The notes beneath the pieces are model-generated. The model did not search any database, had not been told where the DNA came from, and was given only the letters and a program-made list of their open reading frames with translations. Positions 29,164-50,742 of a stretch of DNA of 64,000 nt are shown piece after piece (the first letter of the stretch is position 1; each line of letters starts with the position of its first letter). The stretch is from Clostridiales bacterium Firm_13 (GTDB lineage: Bacteria; Bacillota; Clostridia; Saccharofermentanales; Saccharofermentanaceae): NCBI GenBank assembly GCA_001603035.1, contig LVAS01000059.1, positions 186,001 through 250,000 of the forward strand, read 5' to 3'. The translations under genes were made by a program, and so were the position numbers.

Positions 29164-31110
29164 TTACTCCGTACGGGTGTATTCCGGATGCTCGATTAAA
29201 TACGAGTCGTAGTGAGCTTGCGCGAGCGTGAATATCTCTTCGGAGATATCCGCGGTTAAGTCGCCGGTCGAAACAATAGTTTCCAGAATATCGGGATGCA
29301 TGACCCGAAGCTTCTGCAAAAAATCGTCCAAATACTCACGAACATCCTCTTGACGAAGGAAAGCTAATTTTCCGCTGTTGGCAAGAAGAAGCTGAATGAC
29401 TTGTTCCTCCATCGAAACGGGAGCGTACTGGGGTTGCTTCAGAACTTCGTTGAGCACAACACCTCTCTTTAATTGCATTTGGGTGTTTTCATCCAGATCG
29501 GATCCGAATTGCGCAAACGAGGCCATTTCTCGAGCTTGTGCCAAATTGATACGAAGCGGTCCCGCGACCTTCTTCATCGCTTTGGTCTGTGCCGATCCGC
29601 CGACGCGCGAAACGGATAAGCCGACATTGATGGCGGGTCTTTGTCCCGAAAAGAACAGTTCCGATTCCAGATAGATTTGGCCGTCGGTGATCGAAATAAC
29701 ATTTGTCGGAATGTATGCCGATATGTCGCCGCCCTGTGTCTCGATGATCGGGAGCGCGGTGATCGATCCGCCGCCGTGCGTTGGATCGAGCTTGGCGGCT
29801 CTCTCCAAAAGACGAGAATGCAGATAGAAAACATCGCCCGGATACGCTTCTCGTCCGGGTGGTCTTCTGAGGAGAAGCGAAATCGCACGGTATGCCTGCG
29901 CGTGTTTGGTCAAGTCGTCGTAAACGACAAGGACATCCGAATGGTCCCCGTACATGAATCCTTCGGCGACGGCACATCCGGCGTAAGGCGCAATATACTG
30001 CAGCGAAGCGGGCGCCGAAGCGCTTGCCGCAACAACGACGGTATAAGACATCGCGCCGTACTTATCCAGCGTATTGACCGTCTGCACGATCGTCGACATC
30101 TTCTGCCCGATCGCGACATAGACACAGAGAACACCCTTCCCCTTCTGGTTGATGATCGTATCGATACCGATCGCCGTTTTGCCGGTCTGTCTGTCGCCGA
30201 TAATCAATTCTCTTTGCCCTCGTCCGATCGGTGTCATCGCATCGATGGCCGTGATTCCGGTCTGTAAAGGCACGTTAACAGGCGATCTCTCAATAATTCC
30301 CGGGGCAGGCGACTCGATCGGGCGGTATGTCGTCGTTCGAATAATCCCGTTCCCGTCAATCGGATTACCGAGAGGGTCGATCACACGGCCGAGAAGGCTG
30401 TGTCCGACAGGGACGCTGACCGTTTTACCGGTTCTTTTGCACATTGTTCCTTCGACGACGTCGCTACCGTCATCAAGAAGGATGACGCCGACACGTTCCG
30501 GCTCAAGATTCATCGCAATTCCGTAGGAAGAAGAACTGAAAACAATTAATTCACTCGAAAGGCAGTGCTCAATCCCTTTCACGACGGCGACTCCGTCGCT
30601 CACACTCTCAACCTGTCCGATCTCTTCAACCGTCGTCGTCTCAAGAAAAGAATTCGCCATTTGCTCACGCAGGCGATCCACCATACGGCGGGGCGTATCC
30701 GTCTCGGGCGTCACCGCTCCGGTACCTTCGACCTCCCAAAGCAAATCCTGTCCCTGAAGGGCCATCGGCTGTTCGCCGAACTCCTTTAGTGCCATATCGA
30801 TCGAATTCTTTATCAGCGACGCTTCCGATTCGGGCGCCTCTTTTTCATCCAAATTGGTCGAAATTGCACGGGAACTCTTAAGTTGCTTACCAATACGGGC
30901 AAGCTGTCCCTTTACGCTATAGTCATAGCGATACCCGGCAGCATAAATCACAAATCCGCCGATCAGGTCGGTATCCGTTTCCTGAACGACAGTGTAGTCC
31001 GAAATATGAAAGTGATCCGAAAACTTCTGCGCGATCAGGTGTACCTTATCGCCGGACATTTCGGAGGCCGTAACAATTCGGATCACGCGAAATGTCGCAT
31101 TATCACTCAA
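29164..31110 (-). CDS. atpA: ATP synthase alpha subunit with N-terminal delta C-terminal domain (fusion)
   Basis: 648 residues. Residues about 1-78 ([20 protein letters not shown], then [33 protein letters not shown]) match the C-terminal domain of the delta/OSCP subunit. An acidic linker (about 80-140) leads into a normal alpha of about 508 residues: [19 protein letters not shown], the nucleotide loop [11 protein letters not shown], and [20 protein letters not shown]. The six-helix N-terminal domain of delta is missing, and no separate atpH exists in the operon. The start is a TTG inside the last codons of atpF, with a weak ribosome site, so translation is probably coupled. Confidence 0.9.
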
Positions 31111-31747
31111 TCTTCTTCACCTCAGCCTTAAGTGTTTCGTCCATAATCTTTTGGTTCAATTCCTTCTGGTGGGCATCGTCGATGATTGATCCGACAACCT
31201 TAGATGCGATCGAAACCGCCAGATCCGCGACTTCATCTCGCATTTGATCAAGCATCGCGTTATGCATCCGCCTCGCGTCTTCCGAAGCGCGCTCGACAAC
31301 CGTATTTGCCTCTTTACGCGCAGAATTTACGATGGTCAGGCTCTGCTTCTCCGCCTGTACGCGAGCGTCGGTTACGATACCCGCCGCCTCGTTTTTGGAC
31401 TCTTCAATCCGCTGCGTCGCGCTGTCCATTAAGGTCTGCGCGTCCTTAAGCTTTTTCGCGGACTCATCTAACTCGCTCTGTACTTCTTCACGCCGTTTGT
31501 TGAGTAGCTTGATGATCGGTTTGAATACGAAATGTTTCAGAACGAAATACGCGACAAGCAGGTTAACGACCGTATAGAGCGCCGTCACCGCATAGCCGGC
31601 GAACTGGTCGGGTGACAGAAGGCCTGTTTTGGAGGCGCCTTCCGTGGCGGCGGCGGTAGTCTCTGACGCGGAAGACAGCAAACGAATTGTCAGCGGAAAT
31701 TTATCCGCAACGAGTGCCGTCAAAATAGAAATATACATGTCATTCAC
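31103..31747 (-). CDS. atpF: F-type ATP synthase b subunit
   Basis: 214 residues. An N-terminal 45-residue addition precedes the membrane helix ([20 protein letters not shown]) and the long charged peripheral-stalk helix with heptad-like alanines ([20 protein letters not shown]). The C-terminus ends in the usual [11 protein letters not shown] block. No delta-like sequence is attached, so the stator's delta part must come from the alpha fusion. It overlaps the alpha start by 8 bases. Confidence 0.93.
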
Positions 31748-45989: not shown

Positions 45990-47141
45990 TTAACCGCCGG
46001 TGATCGAAGGAAGAATCGAAGCGGGTATCGTACCGAATCCCGAAAATAGCAGGAGAAGCAAAGCCGCGATAAGAAGTCCGAACGGAATGCCGGATAGAAG
46101 ATCCTGCCGCTTTCCGAACATCATCCGGCGTCGGACCACGCGAGAAAAAAGCAAAAGAAATGTCACGCACGCAAAAATGACGACATAGTATAGAAAAATC
46201 GCGCCGAAAGCCGGCAAGAGCCCCTGTGCTTGAATGAATTCGCCGAAACTTGCCGCGGCAGGCAGGGCGAGTATGAATAAAGTGGCCGGGACCAAATAAA
46301 ATCGTTCCGAATCCGCCGAATCAATCTTCAGAATACGAGGAAGAAATATCTGGAATGGCAGAAGAAGTGCCAAAAAGATAAGAAGGAGTATTTCAAAGGG
46401 GATCGGCATAAATAGAAAGTAGATGCTATACCCAATGACCAGAAGGAATAGACCAAGAAAGAAAAGTCGGATCGCACGCCCGAGGCGGGAACGTTCACTC
46501 TCTCGATCCAGTATGGGTTGCGGATGAAATGTCATCTCTTCCCTGTTCTCGAGTACGATATTCTTGCCTTTGATTTGTCTTACGAGAAAGAGAATCAGAA
46601 CAAGAAGAATCAGTACGAGAAACGCGGAACCGGATGTATGCGTAAGGACCGGCAGGATGTTTTCTTCACCCGGGAGAATTAAAATACCGGCGATGCTTCC
46701 GAAACCGAAAAGTTCCCGCAGCGTCGCGCAGAGAAGCCAAAACGGTAGCAGGGCGAGAAGAGAGCGGAAAATACTCTTTCCGTTGAATGTCTCCGGTTCG
46801 CAAACCTCTTTGGCCAGAAGAGGTACGCTTGCAAGAAGATAAACAGGATCCGGGAAAAACGGGGATGATCCGTTAAGCGACGGAATCAAAAGGAAATCCG
46901 CTCCAAAGCGAAAAGCGATGCCGACAACAAGCGTGATCGTCGTTACCGCAAAAGAAACATGTATGGGAGGAAGTTTGCGCAAGATCGGACGAAGAGAAAG
47001 TACCGCCATCTGAATAAGAAAGATCGAAACGTACCCAAAGACAGCCGAGAACAGGCTGTCGGAATGGATGACGACAAGTGCGCTGTAAAAAAGGACAGAA
47101 GCATAAAGCGAAGGAGAAATTCCTTCCCGCGGGCCGGTCAT
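45990..47141 (-). CDS. RnfE-RnfA-like fusion membrane protein (divergent)
   Basis: 383 residues, about eleven to twelve membrane helices. The first half (1-185) follows RnfE: RPILRKLPPIHVSFAVTTIT corresponds to the arginine-rich loop and helix of RnfE, and ATLRELFGFGSIAG to its conserved REllG-G motif. The second half (about 215-383) follows RnfA: FYLVPATLFILALPAAASFG, then IFLYYVVIFACVTF, and GIPFGLLIAALLLLLFSGFG near the end. The GLCP and GICP cysteines of E and A are absent; only C114 and the cysteine of IFACV may correspond to the second pair. It starts one base after rnfG. Homology is by pattern, so moderately sure. Confidence 0.65.
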   Translation of the reverse strand: MTGPREGISPSLYASVLFYSALVVIHSDSLFSAVFGYVSIFLIQMAVLSLRPILRKLPPIHVSFAVTTITLVVGIAFRFGADFLLIPSLNGSSPFFPDPVYLLASVPLLAKEVCEPETFNGKSIFRSLLALLPFWLLCATLRELFGFGSIAGILILPGEENILPVLTHTSGSAFLVLILLVLILFLVRQIKGKNIVLENREEMTFHPQPILDRESERSRLGRAIRLFFLGLFLLVIGYSIYFLFMPIPFEILLLIFLALLLPFQIFLPRILKIDSADSERFYLVPATLFILALPAAASFGEFIQAQGLLPAFGAIFLYYVVIFACVTFLLLFSRVVRRRMMFGKRQDLLSGIPFGLLIAALLLLLFSGFGTIPASILPSITGG

Positions 47142-47142
47142 A

Positions 47143-48324
47143 TCAGAATTCTCCTTTCAGATAGCGTGTCAGAAAGAGATACATGCGGTTTGCTCCGCGA
47201 ATCACGCTGCGCGATACGTCCAGCGAGTCTCCTGCGGGTTGTAATTGGGTCTTAATCTCGGAATACCCAAAACCGTCAATAGAATCGGCGGTTACGGCGT
47301 CGTTTGCATTGAGAATTACGCCGTCTTCGCTTCCGGGATCACTGTCGTCCGTACCTTCGTCCCCTAAGTCCGGTACGGGTGTCACAGAAATCATCGCGGG
47401 GGTCAATGTCGGCGAAATATCCGCTCGCGTGGGCGTCGGTGAGGTGGAAGATTCCGGTTCGGCAAAATCGCCGTTCTTGGAATCATCGATGCAGAGGTTT
47501 GCCAATTTGAAGAATGCATTTACATTTACGGTGACACCCGGAACCACTTCGGTCGTGCCGTCTGACTTGATCGCGATTTTGGCGGGGTCCTGAACCTCCA
47601 GGAGCATGTTTTGCATCGCATATGCCTGTGCCGCCCAAATCTCTTGATCTCCGTCCAGTTTGAACTCACCGCTTACCGAGGCTTCGGCACGGTTCTTTCC
47701 GCCGTCAATCGCTACGGCATCCCAGGTAACCGCCGTAATTCGGCCGCCCGCGACAACAATCGCAACATAGTCTTTATATCCGGAAGAATCTGCGGTATCA
47801 AGCGACTCCCGAAAGTTTCCGTCTTTCAAACCGGAAACAGGGGGATAAACCGTTGTCGTGACTGCGTTTCCCGGCATATCGTGGGCAAGCGCCGCCGGCA
47901 TCCGCATCTGTTGAAATTGCGCGAAGAATGCGGGGGCGTCATCCGACGAGATCGGCGCGTCGGACGCCGTAAGTCCCGTCAATTTGGTGGCGTCGGCAGA
48001 AAGCGATATGTGCGATATAAATTCTTCTCCGTCCGTCTCATTCCTGTATTCCGCCACATACCCGATAAATGCATTCGAATCAGAGTAGACGCGGTATGCG
48101 GTAAGAATTTCGGGAAACTGTTCGCGCGCTTTATCGTCAAGACGGAGGCGTTCAAATCGCGTCCCAAGAATTACGTCCTGAAATTTGAGACACAGCGCAT
48201 CTTGCTTTTGCCTTTCAAGTCGCATCCCGGTAACCGCATTCATCGAAACAAGAAGGATTACGGTCACCAAAAGAAGTATCGCGGCTTGAAAACCGAGAAG
48301 TCTCGCCGCTTTTCTCGTATTCAT
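47143..48324 (-). CDS. RnfG-like FMN-binding-domain protein, flavinylation motif degenerate
   Basis: 393 residues from the ATG at 48324 that overlaps the rnfD stop. One N-terminal membrane anchor (residues 11-30) precedes an RnfG-like domain (about 80-160). A second FMN_bind-like domain (about 180-280) resembles the PplA repeat (YKDYVAIVVAGGRITAVTWD). The covalent-FMN motif SGAT is not found: the equivalent sites read PGVT (262-265) and PGNAVT (151-156). A Pro/Thr/Ser linker (about 290-320) and an acidic stretch lead to a C-terminal segment ending LDVSRSVIRGANRMYLFL. RnfG proteins are usually near 200 residues. Confidence 0.7.
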   Translation of the reverse strand: MNTRKAARLLGFQAAILLLVTVILLVSMNAVTGMRLERQKQDALCLKFQDVILGTRFERLRLDDKAREQFPEILTAYRVYSDSNAFIGYVAEYRNETDGEEFISHISLSADATKLTGLTASDAPISSDDAPAFFAQFQQMRMPAALAHDMPGNAVTTTVYPPVSGLKDGNFRESLDTADSSGYKDYVAIVVAGGRITAVTWDAVAIDGGKNRAEASVSGEFKLDGDQEIWAAQAYAMQNMLLEVQDPAKIAIKSDGTTEVVPGVTVNVNAFFKLANLCIDDSKNGDFAEPESSTSPTPTRADISPTLTPAMISVTPVPDLGDEGTDDSDPGSEDGVILNANDAVTADSIDGFGYSEIKTQLQPAGDSLDVSRSVIRGANRMYLFLTRYLKGEF

Positions 48325-49316
48325 TTCGCCGCCTCCTTTCGCTTTTGGCCTTCCTTCGGCGTCAGAAACCAACTTGGACTCCCGAAAATTCTGGGGCGGA
48401 TATAGAAGTCCAAAATCGGCGTTACGGCATTCATGACAAGGATCGCAAAAGAAACCGATACAGCGATTGTCGTAAGCCGGCAGAGAATAAAAGTCAAAAG
48501 ACCCGCGCCGACGCCAAAGACAGCTCTTCCCAATGGAGTCGTCGGCGTCGTGGAATAGTCGTTCAACGCAAATACGCCGGCAAAAAGGACTCCTCCGACC
48601 GCAAGAGAACGAATCAAATATCCGAGAGACAGCCCTTGCGCTCCGGGAAAAAGAAGAAAAAGGATGCCGAGAACCCCAAAATAGAAGAGCGGTGCTTGCG
48701 GTCGCAGAATACCGATTGAAAACAGATAGACAGCTCCGATCAGAAGCGCAAACACACATGTCGTTCCGATTTCTCCCGCGAATCGTCCGGAAAGGAGTTC
48801 GAGAACGCCCGCGCCCGCACCGCCGGGACTTGCGACCGCCTCGGTCTGTTGCGGTCCGAAAAGAAGGGACAGCACCTCCCATCGAGCGACCGTCGGCTCC
48901 GAATAAACCGCCGTCAAAGTCGGAAAGGCAAGCGAAAGGAACGCGCGCGCCGTAAATGCCGGATTAAAGAGGTTACTCCCCAACCCGCCGAAACACTGCT
49001 TCACAAGAATTGTCGAGAAGAATGCGCCCAGAATCAGGATCCAGACCGGAACCGTCGGAGGGAAAAGGAGCGCGAGTATCGCACCGCTGACAAGCGAACT
49101 CGCCTCCCAGACATATTTCTCCTTGCGTACATAGCGTACGAACAGAAAATCAAAAACCGCGCACGACACCATGCCGCACAAAATCAAAAGAAGCGCTCGA
49201 ATGCCATAATAGTACACGCCGGATACGGCCGCCGGAAGCAATGCGACAAGGACATGCGGATAAATCATGGAGATACCGAGTTCTTTATGAATATGCGGAG
49301 CAGGAAGTTTTCTCAT
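48321..49316 (-). CDS. rnfD: RnfD-like membrane subunit
   Basis: 331 residues with eight to ten membrane helices. NLFNPAFTARAFLSLAFPTL and FALNDYSTTPTTPLGRAVFG followed by FAILVMNAVTPILDFYIRPR are clear RnfD/NqrB signatures. In RnfD the loop after the first block carries a threonine (SGATPL type) that is esterified to FMN; here it reads AVASPGGAGAG and holds no such motif. It overlaps rnfC and rnfG by 4 bases each. Confidence 0.85.
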   Translation of the reverse strand: MRKLPAPHIHKELGISMIYPHVLVALLPAAVSGVYYYGIRALLLILCGMVSCAVFDFLFVRYVRKEKYVWEASSLVSGAILALLFPPTVPVWILILGAFFSTILVKQCFGGLGSNLFNPAFTARAFLSLAFPTLTAVYSEPTVARWEVLSLLFGPQQTEAVASPGGAGAGVLELLSGRFAGEIGTTCVFALLIGAVYLFSIGILRPQAPLFYFGVLGILFLLFPGAQGLSLGYLIRSLAVGGVLFAGVFALNDYSTTPTTPLGRAVFGVGAGLLTFILCRLTTIAVSVSFAILVMNAVTPILDFYIRPRIFGSPSWFLTPKEGQKRKEAAK

Positions 49317-50656
49317 GTCTCCGGCTCCTTTCTCGGCATCGAATGCGCCGCGCGGACGATTCGGGCAGACAACTCAATCCCCGCCGGGCAGACATACGAA
49401 CACGCGCCGCAAGAAATGCAACGATCAATGCTCTCCGCCGCCAACGCTCGAAAATCAGATAATTCGATCAAGCGATTGCAGACATAAGGAAGCAGCCCGA
49501 CGGGGCAGGCCTCCACACAAGCTCCGCAATGAATACACGGTGTTCGGACCGGGTGCTCTTCTTTAATCAAAGCGATTCCCTGCGTCTGTTTGGTAATCGG
49601 GATATCGAGGCGGTTCACGGACGCCCCCGTAAGCGCTCCGCCGACAACGATCCGATGTGCCGTCTGAACACCCGGTGTCCGTTCAAGAAGATCCGAAAGA
49701 AGGGTTCCAAAAGGCACCAGGACATTCTTTACGGAAGCTTTATCATCGGAGATCGTGATGATCCGCGAGACACTCGGCAAGTTCCGTTCGACCATATCCC
49801 AAAATGCCGCGCAAGTCGAGACATTGTAGACGACGGAAGCGACCGTGTTTTCGGGAAGCTGAGAATCTTCGAGTTCGACGCCGGTCGTCGCACGAATAAG
49901 AAGGCGCTCATATCCTTGCGGAAAACGAGAACGAAATACCAGCATCTCAAGGTGGCGATCGGGGTACATCGGTCGGATTCGGTCGAGCGCGGATCGAAGA
50001 ATCGCAATTTCAGGCTGAAAGGAATCCTGAATGCAGAAGAAAATCTCTCGGACTTGACAACAACTCCCAAGGGCCAGCGCACCCGAAATAACTCGATCCG
50101 CTTGTTCGTGAATAAGGTGAAGATCACAGGAGAGGTGGGGCTCGCTTGAAAGTCCGTTAACATAAAGTCGCGTTACGCCGTTACCGACCGCACGGACACA
50201 CTTTGCGTAAGCGGGATAGCCTTCTCCCCCCATTCCCGCAATACCGGAGCGAAGAAGAAGAAGAGAAAGTTCCTTGGGAGAGAGTCTTTCGGGATTCGCG
50301 CGTCGCGCGACAGAAGCATGATACCTTCTTTTGTTATCGCTCCGTATATGAACCGCTTCCGTTCGAACTCCGTTTGAAAGCGTAACGGTCTCGATCGCCG
50401 TGACCGTACCTGAGATGGTCGCGTGTACAGGGAGGCTGATTCGAGAAGAAGGGCGGCCGATCAGTTGCCCGATACTGACGTCAGCGCCTTCCGCAACGCA
50501 GGGAACAGCCGGGGTGCCGATATGCTGAAGCATCGGTACCAGAACCTCGCGAGGAGAATAAATCTCCAATACACGCTCCTGTACGAGTGTCCGACCTGCA
50601 GCAAAATCAAGGCCGTCAATCGGCAGGAGCCCTTTTCGAAAGGACAGTTTGCCCAT
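49313..50656 (-). CDS. rnfC: RnfC, electron-transport complex subunit
   Basis: 447 residues from the ATG at 50656 (GGGGGAA upstream). The N-terminal barrel-sandwich block (LVPMLQHIGTPAVPCVAEGA, PVHATISGTVTAIE), the flavin/NADH region (RSGIAGMGGEGYPAYAK) and two [4Fe-4S] motifs (CIHCGACVEACP and CISCGACSYVCP) are intact. The usual NGAECEPYLTCD reads NGLSSEPHLSCD. It heads a four-gene set and should be the soluble NADH- or ferredoxin-facing part. Confidence 0.92.
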   Translation of the reverse strand: MGKLSFRKGLLPIDGLDFAAGRTLVQERVLEIYSPREVLVPMLQHIGTPAVPCVAEGADVSIGQLIGRPSSRISLPVHATISGTVTAIETVTLSNGVRTEAVHIRSDNKRRYHASVARRANPERLSPKELSLLLLRSGIAGMGGEGYPAYAKCVRAVGNGVTRLYVNGLSSEPHLSCDLHLIHEQADRVISGALALGSCCQVREIFFCIQDSFQPEIAILRSALDRIRPMYPDRHLEMLVFRSRFPQGYERLLIRATTGVELEDSQLPENTVASVVYNVSTCAAFWDMVERNLPSVSRIITISDDKASVKNVLVPFGTLLSDLLERTPGVQTAHRIVVGGALTGASVNRLDIPITKQTQGIALIKEEHPVRTPCIHCGACVEACPVGLLPYVCNRLIELSDFRALAAESIDRCISCGACSYVCPAGIELSARIVRAAHSMPRKEPET

Positions 50657-50742
50657 GTGTTCCCCCAAACGACACGTAACCGGAACTTCGAAAGAAAAGC
50701 GCTACCCAAACCTAAAAACTGAAGGCTTATCCCCGGAATGAA

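What the first reader, a model, noticed from the sequence alone, without database searches (positions are those of the whole stretch)
29164..31110. ATP synthase alpha subunit fused to the C-terminal domain of delta; no separate atpH
The operon is B-E-F-(H')A-G-D-C. The alpha gene encodes 648 residues; the first 78 match the delta/OSCP C-terminal domain ([30 protein letters not shown]) and the rest is a normal alpha. The delta N-terminal six-helix domain, which normally clamps the alpha N-termini, is absent from the operon. Known biology: one delta per F1 links b to alpha. Inference: the covalent link replaces the N-terminal domain, and each F1 would carry three copies of the b-binding domain, an altered stator stoichiometry.
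Basis: partly seen in the sequence, partly recalled or inferred. Interest (0 to 1): 0.85.

Follow-up and report, generated by a model that had tools for sequence, protein, structure and literature searches.

The report
ATP synthase head with built-in stalk-binders
In this bacterium the half of the ATP synthase delta subunit that normally grips the stator stalk is fused to the only F-type alpha subunit gene found, and delta's other half was not found, so the motor likely carries up to three stalks instead of one and would then be able to make ATP from a weaker ion gradient; the same fusion sits in several separate bacterial lineages.

Summary
The only F-type alpha gene found in this genome encodes 648 residues; residues 9-77 match the delta/OSCP C-terminal domain by Pfam and by predicted fold, the rest is ordinary alpha, and no delta N-terminal domain was found in the operon or the held genome (81% complete). 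The long form has a strong, conserved start signal and its delta part is under purifying selection. The fusion is nearly universal in the family (56 of 57 relatives), common in the order (21 of 40 more), and occurs in several separated lineages (one clade rejected), beside stand-alone C-terminal-only deltas and a full-length delta-alpha fusion. [quoted passage not shown] it also named natural fusions in Acidaminococcus. Deposited Chloroflexus ATP synthase entries hold on average two a and four b per three alpha. I read the window as a natural candidate for a multi-stalk, high-H+/ATP enzyme. Stalk number here is inferred, not shown; crude translation signals did not favour extra a or b.

The parts
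29164..31110 (-). delta-C-alpha fusion gene, 648 aa, TTG start overlapping the last 8 bases of the b gene
   Evidence: overlap of 8 bases in 57 of 90 fused operons
31118..31123 (-). Shine-Dalgarno-like GAGGTG, 7 bases before the TTG start
   Evidence: sequence; motif of 5 or more bases before the long start in 78 of 98 fused loci
30880..31086 (-). delta/OSCP C-terminal domain (residues 9-77)
   Evidence: PF00213 positions 104-172; fold match
30688..30876 (-). linker (residues 79-141)
   Evidence: alignment of 87 fused alphas, median dN/dS 0.094 in 21 pairs
30766..30831 (-). conserved linker helix and F-x-E motif (residues 94-115)
   Evidence: F111 in 85 of 86 and E113 in 86 of 86 aligned residues; helix 94-110 in the model
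30646..30696 (-). helix just before the alpha barrel (residues 139-155), in the place of the canonical alpha N-terminal helix
   Evidence: model, low confidence there; equivalence to the canonical helix is my reading of the alignment
29167..30624 (-). alpha core: barrel, nucleotide-binding and C-terminal domains (residues 163-648)
   Evidence: PF02874, PF00006, PF00306
31103..31747 (-). subunit b, 214 aa
   Evidence: PF00430
31790..32095 (-). subunit c, 101 aa
   Evidence: PF00137
32123..32974 (-). subunit a, 283 aa
   Evidence: PF00119
28222..29157 (-). subunit gamma
   Evidence: PF00231
26803..28206 (-). subunit beta
   Evidence: PF00006, PF02874
26310..26786 (-). subunit epsilon
   Evidence: PF02823

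Best explanation
The gene encodes an ATP synthase alpha subunit that carries the delta C-terminal domain at its N-terminus, and because it is the only F-type alpha gene found in the genome each F1 head would carry three such domains and likely binds up to three b2 stalks and a-subunits instead of one. Shown: the fusion, the absence of a detectable delta N-terminal domain, its conservation, and (on a quick tree) that the fusions do not form one clade. Inferred from the engineered PS3 enzyme: delta's N-terminal domain normally sits on the threefold axis of F1 and allows only one stalk; with it gone and the b-binding domain tied to each alpha, more than one b2-a unit can dock on one c-ring. Inferred for function: more than one a-subunit multiplies the ions moved per turn, so ATP can be made, or ions pumped at low ATP cost, at a small proton-motive force; the enzyme would be a low gear next to a second rotary ATPase (V-type here).
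Against: I found no measured stalk or a-subunit number for any natural fusion. In fused operons the start motifs of a and b are shorter than in canonical ones (mean 4.66 against 5.68 for a, 4.74 against 5.29 for b), though a and b start more often with ATG; gamma, beta and epsilon motifs are shorter too, so this is not specific, and all of it is confounded by kinship. One lineage fuses a full-length delta to alpha (L095, 679 aa; five database proteins of 675-676 aa): three N-terminal domains would not all fit on the axis (inference), so fusion alone need not mean multi-stalk. Longer a, b and c proteins mark the window's order by median, not the other fused lineages. In the engineered enzyme the share of particles with three stalks on the grid was extremely low.
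Confidence: 0.58

Rival explanations
1. Single-stalk enzyme: three delta-C domains per F1, but only one b2 and one a-subunit dock, two domains stay idle; the fusion merely replaces the anchoring done by delta's N-terminal domain.
For: The 2025 paper states that ATP synthases so far have a single a-subunit; a and b initiation motifs are not raised; assembly could be limited by b or a supply.
Against: The engineered twin with the same parts takes up two stalks on average; the Chloroflexus deposits hold two; nothing I know of would keep the other two identical sites empty once the N-terminal domain is gone.
Confidence: 0.3
2. Mixed heads: internal initiation or proteolysis makes some alpha without the delta part, so that one fused and two plain alphas restore one stalk.
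For: Eight in-frame ATG/GTG/TTG codons lie between the window's delta part and the alpha core; proteolytic trimming would leave no trace in DNA.
Against: None of the eight passes the motif test; internal candidates pass in 9 of 98 loci (three of the 98 could not be scanned), mostly at differing places, while the long start has 5 or more motif bases in 78 of 98; delta part and linker are under purifying selection.
Confidence: 0.06
3. Same multi-stalk architecture, but used as a proton pump: in a fermenting cell it hydrolyses ATP and exports many protons per ATP at a low gradient, while the second rotary ATPase does the other job.
For: 31 of 44 fused genomes also have a V-type ATPase and 7 a canonical F-type; the c-subunits of the second F-type operons differ at the ion-site motif (sequences; meaning of the motif recalled, not tested).
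Against: An Rnf-like cluster lies near the fused operon in the window and an RnfD match on the same contig in 18 of 33 family relatives, which would feed a synthase; the engineered enzyme pumped less than wild type.
Confidence: 0.25
4. Debris or assembly artefact: a broken atpH read into atpA.
For: Only that the delta half is missing.
Against: Same match in 56 of 57 family relatives and in the records of strains KHP2 and YAD3003; purifying selection.
Confidence: 0.01

Closest known systems
Engineered delta-deltaN-alpha fused FoF1 of Bacillus PS3 (Ueno et al. 2025, PMC12229609; PDB 9jc1, 9jc2)
   Same: Delta N-terminal domain removed, delta C-terminal domain joined to the N-terminus of every alpha; top PDB row for the window's protein.
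   Different: Designed, short linker; the natural one has a linker of about 60 residues with a conserved extra helix and F-x-E motif. Stalk number known only for the engineered one.
Natural delta-alpha fusion of Acidaminococcus fermentans and UniProt G4Q3K6, A0A1I2C5T3 (named in the Discussion of PMC12229609)
   Same: Delta without N-terminal domain fused to alpha; the authors call a multi-stalk structure highly likely.
   Different: I did not see those sequences; whether they share an origin with any lineage here is untested.
Chloroflexus aurantiacus ATP synthase (PDB 9itj and related entries)
   Same: Deposits hold on average two a, four b and two delta per three alpha: a natural enzyme with more than one stalk.
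   Different: Delta is a separate, short (157 aa) protein, not fused. The paper was not in the library; I use chain counts only.
Mycobacterial b-delta fusion (for example 7jg5 chain d)
   Same: Delta built into a neighbour subunit.
   Different: Partner is b; that delta is complete and the enzyme has one stalk (recalled).
N-ATPase (alternate F1Fo)
   Same: No stand-alone delta gene (recalled; passages of PMC5709465).
   Different: Window alpha scores 595.6 against a cut-off of 750.5 for TIGR03324; gene order differs.

Membership tests
F-type ATP synthase alpha subunit | Full alpha: barrel, nucleotide-binding and C-terminal domains | tested here: met
   PF02874, PF00006, PF00306 and TIGR00962 at 719.9 bits against 484.45
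F-type ATP synthase delta/OSCP | C-terminal domain | tested here: met
F-type ATP synthase delta/OSCP | N-terminal six-helix domain | tested here: not met
   No match to profile positions before 102 in the gene or in the held genome at E up to 10; a strongly diverged domain could be missed
delta-deltaN-alpha fused FoF1 (Ueno et al.) | Delta C-terminal domain, without the N-terminal domain, at the N-terminus of alpha | tested here: met
delta-deltaN-alpha fused FoF1 (Ueno et al.) | No plain alpha in the complex | tested here: met
   One F-type alpha gene in the held genome; genome 80.8% complete
delta-deltaN-alpha fused FoF1 (Ueno et al.) | More than one stalk and a-subunit | not testable with these tools
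   Needs the purified complex
delta-deltaN-alpha fused FoF1 (Ueno et al.) | Raised H+/ATP ratio | not testable with these tools
   Needs reconstituted enzyme
N-ATPase (alternate F1Fo) | Alpha above the TIGR03324 cut-off | tested here: not met
   595.6 against 750.5 bits
Mycobacterial b-delta fusion | Delta fused to b | tested here: not met
   b is 214 aa and has no PF00213 match

The most novel reading that the evidence does not exclude
Clostridia and related bacteria have repeatedly evolved three-stalk, three-a ATP synthases: the delta N-terminal domain is a gear lock, and the natural series seen here (full delta; shortened delta; C-terminal domain alone; C-terminal domain fused to alpha) is a series of one-, two- and three-stalk enzymes with rising H+/ATP, run as a low gear beside a V-type or second F-type ATPase.
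Probability: 0.4. Interest if true: 0.92.

Novelty: new member of a known kind. Interest (0 to 1): 0.7.

Why it matters
One stalk and one a-subunit per F1 has been the textbook rule, and the ion cost of ATP was thought to vary in nature through c-ring size alone. If these enzymes are multi-stalk, the ratio is also set by delta, it has changed more than once, and a large group of anaerobes, many of them from rumen and gut samples by their record titles, may run on a different energy budget. The strains and seven-gene operons found here make that testable.

Tried and rejected
Internal start of a plain alpha: no conserved one. Stand-alone N-terminal domain elsewhere: partial low-score matches (for example G003 1-43, G081 4-32, G071 36-99) are not recurrent and lie in frames of 335-598 aa. 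Stronger a and b initiation in fused operons as a sign of more stalks: not seen. Extra segments of a, b and c as a mark of multi-stalk enzymes: medians are raised in the window's order (a +34, c +10, b +17 residues at the N-end) but not over the other 19 fused loci (+8, -1, -4), some of which do have long a and c. One origin of all fusions: rejected by AU test on a quick tree, in which three rows had odd letter make-up; gain, loss and transfer cannot be told apart by the count of changes. A tree with Acidaminococcus was not possible: no call held its sequence under that name. Literature: searches showed no study of a natural fused enzyme beyond the Discussion of PMC12229609; the library lacks most subscription journals and preprints, so this is no proof of absence. 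The Chloroflexus paper was not found. Of PMC12229609 I saw the outline, passages and the whole Discussion; of PMC5709465 passages only; other papers as search listings with abstract starts.

Full report

Nothing else found supplies delta. In the held genome (67 contigs, 80.8% complete) PF00213 matches this gene alone at E up to 10; there is one F-type alpha (the other three matches are the window's beta and two places on contig C10, near the V-type match and presumably V-type subunits) and one subunit a. All three alphas of an F1 should therefore be fused.

It is very likely a real product. The TTG start overlaps the b stop by 8 bases, with GAGGTG 7 bases ahead. In 98 fused loci (some genomes counted under two locus ids) the long start has a motif of at least 5 bases in 78; a start between delta part and core passes a similar test in 9 (three loci could not be scanned), and none of the window's eight internal codons does. 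In disjoint pairs of relatives median dN/dS is 0.070 for the delta part (25 pairs), 0.094 for the linker (21), 0.104 for the alpha N-terminal helix (25) and 0.038 for the core (32). The linker holds a predicted helix followed by F-x-E: F111 in 85 of 86 and E113 in 86 of 86 aligned residues.

Spread in the family and order. Among the 57 relatives of the same family the C-terminal-type match is in 56, in 54 of them within a frame of 634-661 aa (one of these, G032, with a stop in the matched stretch; G020 and G035 lie in shorter frames; G011 has no match). Among the 40 further genomes of the order it lies in a frame of 569-705 aa in 21: 13 of 14 in family f3, 7 of 12 in f4 and 1 of 14 in f2 (G064 and G078 under the Pfam cut-off, G090 with a stop). 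22 of the 57, all in genus g2, also have a full-length delta; in the four that I annotated (L052, L054, L055, L056) it lies in a second, complete eight-gene operon. A scan of named genomes gave 87 relatives, 80 kept; 79 of 80 have an alpha of 610-694 aa, the other is cut by a contig end, and none showed a delta gene in the locus. They include Ruminococcaceae strains KHP2 and YAD3003, whose titles do not say MAG. L122, 'Clostridia bacterium isolate Chersky_828', has the contig length of G001's locus, the window's genus mate.

Beyond the order. In a class-wide sample 224 of 393 genomes had a delta match; the list of places showed the strongest only. I re-queried 31 with weak or odd matches: in 17 of 31 the match lies in a frame of 584-679 aa, that is fused (G110 with nearly the whole delta; G224, G438 and G457 with stops inside the reported stretch), and in five it lies in a frame of 71-121 aa (G432, G117, G136, G445, G306). 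A phylum-wide sample gave 7 fused genomes of 149 (G119, G471, G489, G511, G544, G566, G572). Stand-alone C-terminal-only deltas of 71-89 aa sit between b and alpha in L033, L107, L109 and L110, and shortened deltas of 150 and 153 aa in L113 and L108. L095 (679 aa) fuses a full-length delta to alpha; five database proteins of 675-676 aa are alike. On a 61-row alpha+beta tree the fused label needs 7 changes, at least 5 by well-supported branches, and loss of the N-terminal domain 9; holding all fusions in one clade is rejected (p-AU 1.7e-36, quick tree). Changes may be gains, losses or transfers.

What it works like. Ueno et al. 2025 (PMC12229609; outline, passages and whole Discussion seen) reasoned that delta's N-terminal domain, seated on the threefold axis of F1, limits the stalks to one, removed residues 2-104 of PS3 delta and fused the rest to alpha. 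The enzyme had on average two stalks and two a-subunits, up to three by cryo-EM, H+/ATP 5.8 against 3.0 and an equilibrium pmf of 68 against 133 mV at Q 2.5. Its parts list is that of the window. The authors point to Acidaminococcus fermentans and two UniProt entries as natural cases and call multi-stalk highly likely there. [quoted passage not shown] Independently, the deposited Chloroflexus aurantiacus entries hold on average 3 alpha, 2 delta, 4 b and 2 a per entry, so a natural enzyme with two stalks seems to exist; its delta has 157 residues with the C-terminal domain at 85-154, hence a shortened N-terminal part (inference).

Setting. Of the 58 genomes (the window's included), 44 carry the fused gene over the Pfam cut-off: 31 of these also a V-type ATPase, 7 a canonical F-type, 6 neither; four of the six are 97-98% complete (compiled by hand). 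The window's genome belongs to the first group. So the fused enzyme can stand alone but is mostly one of two. The c-subunits of the fused operons read like proton types and those of the second operons of genus g2 have a second acidic residue at the ion site (sequences); the reading of that motif is recalled, not tested. An Rnf-like cluster lies at 45990-50668 in the window, and in 18 of the 33 family relatives an RnfD match lies on the same contig 8-14 kb from the fused gene (places).

Against my reading. I found no natural fused complex that has been counted. a and b initiation motifs are shorter in fused than in canonical operons (4.66 against 5.68, 4.74 against 5.29), as are those of gamma, beta and epsilon, although a and b start more often with ATG (80 of 87 and 87 of 90, against 31 of 50 and 39 of 51) and alpha less often (22 of 91 against 42 of 52). 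The full-length delta-alpha fusion shows that fusion does not always go with loss of the N-terminal domain. The long a, b and c of the window's order are not shared, by median, by the other fused lineages.

Verdict. Observation confirmed, interpretation supported with the stoichiometry still inferred. It is a new member, and a large new territory, of a kind announced in 2025; its value is that the open question of that paper, whether nature uses multi-stalk ATP synthases of this design, can now be asked of named strains and in many lineages.

Noticed in passing
window 45990-50668 (-): Rnf-like cluster: RnfC (TIGR01945 above cut-off), RnfD-like just under its NCBIfam cut-off, a protein with a weak flavoprotein match and a 383-aa protein without any family match; no RnfA, B or E recognised among the four scanned. 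Near the fused operon in many family relatives.
   Followed up: partly
G000 contig C10:992-7440: V/A-type ATPase subunits in the window's own genome, a second rotary ATPase.
   Followed up: partly
L052, L054, L055, L056: Second, canonical eight-gene F-type operon in genus g2; the 7 genomes with a full-length delta that one search covered in this genus all lack a V-type match. Its c-subunit has an extra acidic residue at the ion site.
   Followed up: partly
L095:5643-7682 (-): Full-length delta fused to alpha (679 aa): three complete deltas per F1 would be expected, which the threefold axis could hardly seat.
   Followed up: partly
L033, L107, L109, L110: Stand-alone delta genes of 71-89 aa that hold only the C-terminal domain.
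   Followed up: partly
L258:5072-9848 (-): Three delta-C-like ORFs (111-160 aa) in one stretch of G492 without other ATP synthase genes recognised in the fetched locus.
   Followed up: no
L114:7237-8283 (+), L257:6192-7064 (+): Unusually long deltas (348 and 290 aa) with more than one OSCP C-terminal match in the frame.
   Followed up: no
G595:C56:73308-73583: Match to the delta N-terminal half alone (positions 6-97) in a 164-aa frame.
   Followed up: no
L105:7596-9956 (+): Single open frame of 786 aa matching both gamma and beta.
   Followed up: no
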